From Pseudomonadota bacterium (lineage in GTDB: Bacteria > Pseudomonadota > Gammaproteobacteria > Acidiferrobacterales > UBA6901), in assembly GCA_021785515.1 (NCBI GenBank), contig JAJYEX010000007.1, forward strand, positions 124,001-188,000: 64,000 nt of DNA. The letters run 5' to 3'. Below, one piece after another: positions 57,339 to 57,846 of the stretch. The position numbers and the translations under genes are program-made. The notes under the pieces were generated by a model. The model saw only the letters and a program-made list of their open reading frames with translations, was not told where the DNA came from and made no database searches. Numbering within the stretch: the first letter of the stretch is position 1; every line of letters begins with the position of its first letter.

Positions 57339-57477
57339 ACTGCACGCCGCGCAGTTCCCTCCGGGAACAACTTGGGTATACTGGTTCGGCGCAGTTGATT
57401 GCGGTTGAAATACAGGACTACCTACCAGCGGGTGTAACAGTCACCGTGCGGTAATACGAGCTAAGGAGGGTGCGACA

Positions 57478-57846
57478 ATGCCAAGCCTTATCGATGTGAT
57501 CCGGCAGGGAGGGGAGAGCGTGCCGACGGATCCGGAATTTCCCCATGCCCCGTCTGAATGGACCAGGCAGCAGGCAGCGGATCTTGCCAGAGCGGAACAG
57601 CTTGTTCCCGGCAAGGATCACTGGGAAGCCATCCGTGCGCTGCAACAGTACTTTTTCCGGCACCAGGATACGCCGGTGAACGTGCATGAACTCCACGACG
57701 CGCTCGAGGAAAAATTCCACCGCCAGGGCGGAATGCGGTATCTCTATCAGCTCTTTCCGGCAGGTCCGGTGGCTCAGGGCTGCCGGCTGGCCGGGCTGAA
57801 GGCGCCGGCGGGGACGGTTGACCGCGGTTTCGGGAGCGTCGTCTAG
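57478..57846 (+). CDS. DsrC/TusE-family protein lacking the C-terminal redox cysteine
   Basis: A 122-residue DsrC-family protein (WTRQQAADLARAEQ, KDHWEAIRALQQYFF, MRYLYQLFPAGPVAQGCRLA). DsrC has two cysteines, 11 residues apart, on a flexible C-terminal arm; TusE keeps only the terminal one. Here the inner cysteine (Cys102 in QGCRLAGL) is kept, but the outer position is Thr113 (GTVDRG), and the protein runs nine residues beyond it. It could still bind sulfur at Cys102, but cannot form the usual trisulfide/disulfide. An AAGGAGG lies about 8 bp before the ATG. It lies between the ATPase and the FtsH gene, without other dsr genes. Confidence 0.85.
   Translation: MPSLIDVIRQGGESVPTDPEFPHAPSEWTRQQAADLARAEQLVPGKDHWEAIRALQQYFFRHQDTPVNVHELHDALEEKFHRQGGMRYLYQLFPAGPVAQGCRLAGLKAPAGTVDRGFGSVV

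What the first reader, a model, noticed from the sequence alone, without database searches (positions are those of the whole stretch)
57478..57846. DsrC-family protein with the inner cysteine but not the terminal one
In DsrC the inner (CysA) and penultimate (CysB) cysteines form the trisulfide carrier, while TusE keeps only CysB. Here the position of CysB is Thr113 and the chain extends nine residues beyond. A CysA-only DsrC-like protein cannot use the known two-cysteine chemistry and suggests a regulatory or single-site persulfide role. Neither dsrAB nor tus genes are nearby.
Basis: partly seen in the sequence, partly recalled or inferred. Interest (0 to 1): 0.6.

Follow-up and report, generated by a model that had tools for sequence, protein, structure and literature searches.

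The report
Tailed DsrC paralogue of sulfur oxidisers
A small relative of the sulfur-carrying protein DsrC has lost the cysteine that carries sulfur and gained a fixed-length, conserved tail instead; it is found almost only in bacteria that oxidise sulfur with the Dsr enzymes, so it is probably an accessory or control part of that pathway and not a sulfur carrier.

Summary
The ORF at 57478-57846 is a DsrC-family protein with Cys102 at the CysA position, Thr113 at CysB and nine residues beyond. It is not a sequencing error: it belongs to a conserved subfamily. In my sample, 77 such proteins sit on one side of a well-supported branch. All 77 have exactly 20 residues after the CysA column and nearly all end in D-x-x-F-G-[S/T/A]-x-x. 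The genome has a complete rDsr cluster with a true two-cysteine DsrC on the same contig, outside the window. Carriers almost always have dsrA: 28 of 29 in a 276-genome sample, against 63 of 247 others. A. vinosum DSM 180 has a 55%-identical orthologue. Best reading: an rDsr-associated, non-carrier DsrC paralogue that acts by docking its fixed-length arm into a partner. The dsrA association is shown; the docking and the regulatory role are inferred. The subfamily may be, or overlap with, 'RspA', which I could not test. A knockout in A. vinosum would test it.

The parts
57463..57469 (+). Shine-Dalgarno AAGGAGG, 8 nt before the ATG
   Evidence: sequence
57478..57846 (+). DsrC-family gene, 122 aa (FG-tailed subfamily)
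   Evidence: PF04358 65.6 bits, TIGR03342 63.9 bits; predicted fold closest to A. vinosum DsrC 1yx3, Foldseek probability 1.00
57781..57783 (+). codon of Cys102 (CysA position)
   Evidence: TGC; alignment
57814..57816 (+). codon of Thr113 (CysB position)
   Evidence: ACG; alignment; A/S/T in 66 of 77 tailed proteins
57817..57843 (+). nine residues beyond Thr113, VDRGFGSVV; Asp115, Phe118, Gly119, Ser120 are the conserved tail
   Evidence: predicted disordered in the lone chain, residues 117-122 pLDDT under 50

Best explanation
It is a DsrC-fold paralogue specific to organisms with the DsrAB pathway that does not carry sulfur. It keeps the DsrC body and a C-terminal arm, but the sulfur-carrying CysB is replaced by a small residue and the arm is extended to a fixed length of 20 residues after the CysA column, ending in D-x-x-F-G-S-V. 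The arm most likely inserts into or docks on a partner that normally handles DsrC (candidates: DsrAB, DsrK of DsrMKJOP, DsrL, DsrEFH) and modulates sulfur flux, as a competitor or regulator rather than a substrate. Shown: fold family, loss of CysB, constant arm length, conserved tail, frequent absence of CysA in relatives, co-occurrence with dsrA, purifying selection. Inferred: the docking, the partner and the regulatory outcome.
For: Tree: all 77 FG-tailed sequences on one side of a starred branch (96/96), apart from DsrC and the other classes. All 77 have exactly 20 residues after the CysA column (the filter asked for Gly119 and at least six residues from Asp115 on, not for this length). Entropies: Gly119 0 (fixed by the filter), Phe118 0.37, Asp115 0.51, Cys102 0.95 (the filter also limited residue 118 to F/Y/S/G). 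dsrA in 28/29 carriers against 63/247 others, Fisher p 2.8e-14 (not corrected for phylogeny); 20/23 in a second set of MAGs (at least one genome shared with the first set); 6/6 in a phylum sample. Adjacent to dsrL, with dsrA nearby, in L029, L031 and L034. The genome already has a true DsrC in its rDsr cluster, so this is not the carrier. Loss of CysB abolishes sulfur binding and weakens DsrEFH binding in A. vinosum DsrC (PMC3397948).
Against: No partner is shown; complexes could not be modelled. In most genomes, this one included, the gene is not in the dsr locus. About two thirds of dsrA genomes in the sample lack the core form, so it is not essential to rDsr. The lone-chain model leaves the tail disordered. 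CysA is still Cys in 60 of 77, so a thiol role in the core group is not excluded.
Confidence: 0.6

Rival explanations
1. Single-site thiol or persulfide carrier: Cys102 takes up one sulfane sulfur, or forms a mixed disulfide or glutathione adduct, and passes it on.
For: CysA is Cys in 60 of 77 and in all 25 members of alignment A1; 13 of the 77 have two cysteines, so others may help.
Against: CysA is Ser/Thr/Leu in 17 of 77, four of them inside the core group (L043, L063, L078, L079), and 12 have no cysteine. DsrC with CysA but not CysB bound no sulfur (PMC3397948).
Confidence: 0.15
2. Transcriptional regulator of the kind proposed for RspA: a DsrC-like protein that controls gene expression and does not need the conserved cysteines.
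For: Matches the idea of a DsrC-superfamily protein that does not need its cysteines (my recollection of Venceslau et al. 2014; not in the held library). Cysteine is dispensable in the clade.
Against: Median pI 5.43, own pI 6.0, so no overall basic charge; the only DNA-binding fold hits (Cre) are weak, probability 0.28 or less; not next to a regulated sulfur operon in most genomes.
Confidence: 0.2
3. A TusE-like protein for tRNA 2-thiouridine synthesis.
For: Automatic annotation calls it a TusE/DsrC/DsvC sulfur relay protein.
Against: TusE needs CysB, absent here; NF008562 (TusE) scores 50 against a cut-off of 191; another paralogue on C4 ends in PTGCV.
Confidence: 0.02
4. A decaying DsrC duplicate without function.
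For: It has lost a catalytic residue.
Against: Same tail and arm length in 77 proteins; dN/dS about 0.17 against the nearest orthologues; clean Shine-Dalgarno and ORF.
Confidence: 0.01

Closest known systems
DsrC (A. vinosum Alvin_1256, PDB 1yx3)
   Same: Same fold and family; CysA position conserved
   Different: CysB replaced by Thr; arm eight residues longer; not in the dsr operon; 28% identical to the genome's own DsrC
FG-tailed DsrC paralogue of A. vinosum (at 855.2-855.5 kb; probably Alvin_0732 by position)
   Same: 55% identical orthologue, same CysA and tail ...QGCRFAGLTAPSGAADKSFGSVQ
   Different: Different gene neighbours; the A. vinosum paralogues are listed in the literature as of unknown role (PMC3368242)
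TusE
   Same: Same superfamily
   Different: TusE keeps CysB only; this keeps CysA only and has a longer tail
RspA (DsrC-like regulatory sulfur-related protein, from memory)
   Same: DsrC-like protein for which the cysteines are said to be unnecessary
   Different: Could not be compared: the paper is not in the library; whether RspA has the FG tail is unknown to me
Viral dsrC_1 of SUP05 phages (PMC4164917)
   Same: Lacks the second C-terminal cysteine
   Different: Reported to lack a 7-8 residue insertion as well; one pattern-based scan of the viral contigs found no FG-tailed relative

Membership tests
DsrC/TusE superfamily (PF04358, TIGR03342) | profile score over curated cut-off | tested here: met
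   65.6 against 24.9 bits and 63.9 against 53.5 bits
DsrC/TusE superfamily (PF04358, TIGR03342) | DsrC fold | tested here: met
   AlphaFold2 model, mean pLDDT 73; top PDB hits 1yx3 and 7syb, Foldseek probability 1.00, TMq 0.60, though E-values are only 1.7e-3 and 1.2e-2
DsrC sensu stricto | both CysA and penultimate CysB | tested here: not met
   Thr113 at CysB, chain continues nine residues
DsrC sensu stricto | gene in or by the dsr cluster | tested here: not met
   own gene about 139 kb from dsrC on the same contig; L029, L031 and L034 are exceptions
TusE | CysB retained; equivalog score | tested here: not met
   no CysB; NF008562 50 of 191 bits
RspA | DsrC-like, conserved cysteines not needed | tested here: inconclusive
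   CysA absent in 17 of 77 and all cysteines absent in 12 of 77 fits, but the definition rests on memory and no RspA sequence was on hand
RspA | role in gene regulation | not testable with these tools
   needs expression or DNA-binding experiments
FG-tailed subfamily (defined here) | 20 residues after the CysA column, D-x-x-F-G-[S/T/A] terminus, on the FG side of the tree | tested here: met

The most novel reading that the evidence does not exclude
An undescribed, cysteine-independent branch of the DsrC superfamily that controls the reverse-Dsr pathway by inserting a decoy arm into DsrAB or DsrMK(L), in competition with DsrC.
Probability: 0.2. Interest if true: 0.7.

Novelty: new variant of a known kind. 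Interest (0 to 1): 0.45.

Why it matters
DsrC hits are used as a marker of sulfur metabolism, and all 25 members scanned match the NCBI 'sulfur relay protein' model. This subfamily lacks the residue that carries sulfur, so that name is probably misleading, while dsrA is found in nearly every carrier genome tested. If it is a control or docking part of the rDsr pathway, it gives a handle on how DsrC traffic is regulated. The orthologue in A. vinosum makes the question testable in an organism for which dsr mutants exist (PMC3397948).

Tried and rejected
Sequencing error or decay: rejected. Conserved operon partner: none; close relatives share P-type ATPase and FtsH neighbours (L010, L011), other genomes differ. 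Viral origin: one scan found no FG-tailed relative in viral contigs. Regulator by charge or fold: no support. Literature on RspA and the A. vinosum paralogues: only PMC3368242 and PMC11267869 are held; the latter reports Alvin_0732 up about 4-fold and dsrAB down about 22-fold on pyrite, but equating the tailed protein with Alvin_0732 is an interpolation of gene numbers along the chromosome, not an annotation look-up. soxB also associates with the family (27 of 29), as expected for sulfur oxidisers; most dsrA genomes without it have soxB too (56 of 63). Two attempts to reach A. vinosum by taxonomic order failed.

Full report
Observation. The ORF at 57478-57846 (+) starts with ATG eight bases after AAGGAGG and encodes 122 aa. 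It is a DsrC-family protein by Pfam (65.6 bits) and NCBIfam TIGR03342 (63.9 bits). Its nearest solved relative is A. vinosum DsrC, 1yx3, which is also the top fold match of the predicted model (probability 1.00, TMq 0.60, E 1.7e-3; model pLDDT 73 with residues 117-122 disordered). Cys102 is at the CysA position; Thr113, 11 residues later, is at CysB; VDRGFGSVV follows.

Genome setting. The genome (G000, 3.05 Mb) has five PF04358 genes. One is a true DsrC (both cysteines) in a complete rDsr cluster on the same contig, C18; I named its genes dsrA, B, E, F, H, C, M, K, L, J, O, P and N by eye from the ORF list, with dsrA confirmed by its family model. The others are one with neither cysteine (C18:49873), one with CysA only and a different end, MRRPRAWSTG (C11:624459), one with CysB only (C4:211505) and the window gene. 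A second, stand-alone dsrAB is on C11. So the window gene is about 139 kb from dsrC, and the genome is that of a sulfur oxidiser with a full pathway and soxB.

The gene is one of a conserved subfamily. A scan of genome contigs gave 28 relatives in gamma-, beta- and alphaproteobacterial MAGs, 50-74% identical. All keep Cys at CysA; one (L016) also has Cys at CysB; nearly all share the tail D-x-x-F-G-S-V. Adding members from 276 genomes of the class and weaker hits, 77 tailed proteins fall on one side of a starred branch (96/96), with DsrC, TusE-like and other classes on the other. The tree has few columns, the tail columns are among those used, and many inner forks are unresolved. All 77 have exactly 20 residues after the CysA column; the filter for the group asked for Gly119, F/Y/S/G at 118 and at least six residues from Asp115 on, not for this length, so Gly119 being invariant is by construction but the constant length is not. 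CysA is Cys in 60, Ser in 14, Thr in 2 and Leu in 1; 12 proteins have no cysteine. The CysB column is Ala 34, Ser 24, Thr 8, Cys 3. Phe118 (entropy 0.37) and Asp115 (0.51) are more conserved than Cys102 (0.95). Purifying selection is seen against the nearest orthologues (dN/dS about 0.17).

Association with dsrAB. In the 276-genome sample, 29 genomes carry the core form and 28 of them have dsrA; 63 of the other 247 have dsrA (Fisher p 2.8e-14). The core form was taken as the hits above about 90 bits, below which the next hits drop to 80 bits and 36-42% identity. For a wider tailed group it is 38 of 40. The one core exception, G080, is 90% complete and its congener G190 has dsrA. In the genome-contig set, 20 of 23 have dsrA (at least one of these, G297, appears to be the same genome as G166 of the first set). 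In a phylum sample, six of six genomes tested have it. The p value treats genomes as independent, which they are not; the pattern recurs across many families. The converse does not hold: most dsrA genomes lack the core form, so it is accessory.

Neighbours. In three MAGs (L029, L031, L034) the gene is convergent with dsrL and near a cysteine-free DsrC paralogue and dsrA. In close relatives (L010, L011) it sits between a P-type ATPase and FtsH as here. Elsewhere it is a lone gene with varied neighbours.

A tractable model. G980 has a chromosome contig of 3,526,903 bp, which is the length published for A. vinosum DSM 180, and a DsrC identical to 1yx3. It carries a 55%-identical tailed paralogue, by position probably Alvin_0732, one of four paralogues whose role 'remains to be established' (PMC3368242). 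One transcriptome reports Alvin_0732 up about 4-fold on pyrite while dsrAB fall about 22-fold (PMC11267869); this is suggestive only.

Mechanism. In A. vinosum DsrC, sulfur binds CysB; the CysB mutant, CysA intact, lost sulfur binding and bound DsrEFH much more weakly (PMC3397948). A CysB-less arm is therefore unlikely to be a sulfur carrier, and the loss of CysA in many relatives argues that no cysteine is needed. What selection keeps is the DsrC body plus an arm of fixed length with a D-x-x-F-G terminus. The simplest reading is that the arm docks in a partner that recognises DsrC arms. That partner, and whether the effect is regulatory, are not shown.

Verdict. Real and conserved, at 0.6 confidence for the non-carrier, rDsr-associated reading. 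Novelty: a variant of a known superfamily; it may coincide with RspA, which I could not check. Neither Pfam nor NCBIfam gave it a model of its own.

Noticed in passing
L006:11127-13583 and L088:1594-3994 (own genome, C18 and C11): Two dsrAB copies in one genome: DsrB copies 87% identical but DsrA copies 71%, so dsrB may have been converted; the second pair stands alone. Several relatives also have two dsrA.
   Followed up: partly
L003 (C11:624459-624758) and L017:8484-8807, L019:12193-12501: A second CysA-only DsrC type, not tailed, ending QACK(V/I)AGMRRPRAWSTG; in this genome it lies about 11 kb from the second dsrAB.
   Followed up: no
L006:16864-17205; L029:4194-4550, L031:10923-11264, L034:10891-11232: A DsrC-like protein with neither CysA nor CysB (..SKQAGKIAGLPESMRKGGY in this genome) next to a Cmx6-like gene, seen here and in three other rDsr genomes.
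   Followed up: no
L016:1400-1750: A tailed member that still has Cys at both CysA and CysB columns; no dsrA was found in its MAG.
   Followed up: no
L037:7001-7806: Two tailed paralogues in tandem in a Rhodospirillales MAG in which dsrA was not found.
   Followed up: no
L103:4582-5262: Tailed gene convergent with another DsrC-like gene ending CKLAGLPMPPPDT.
   Followed up: no
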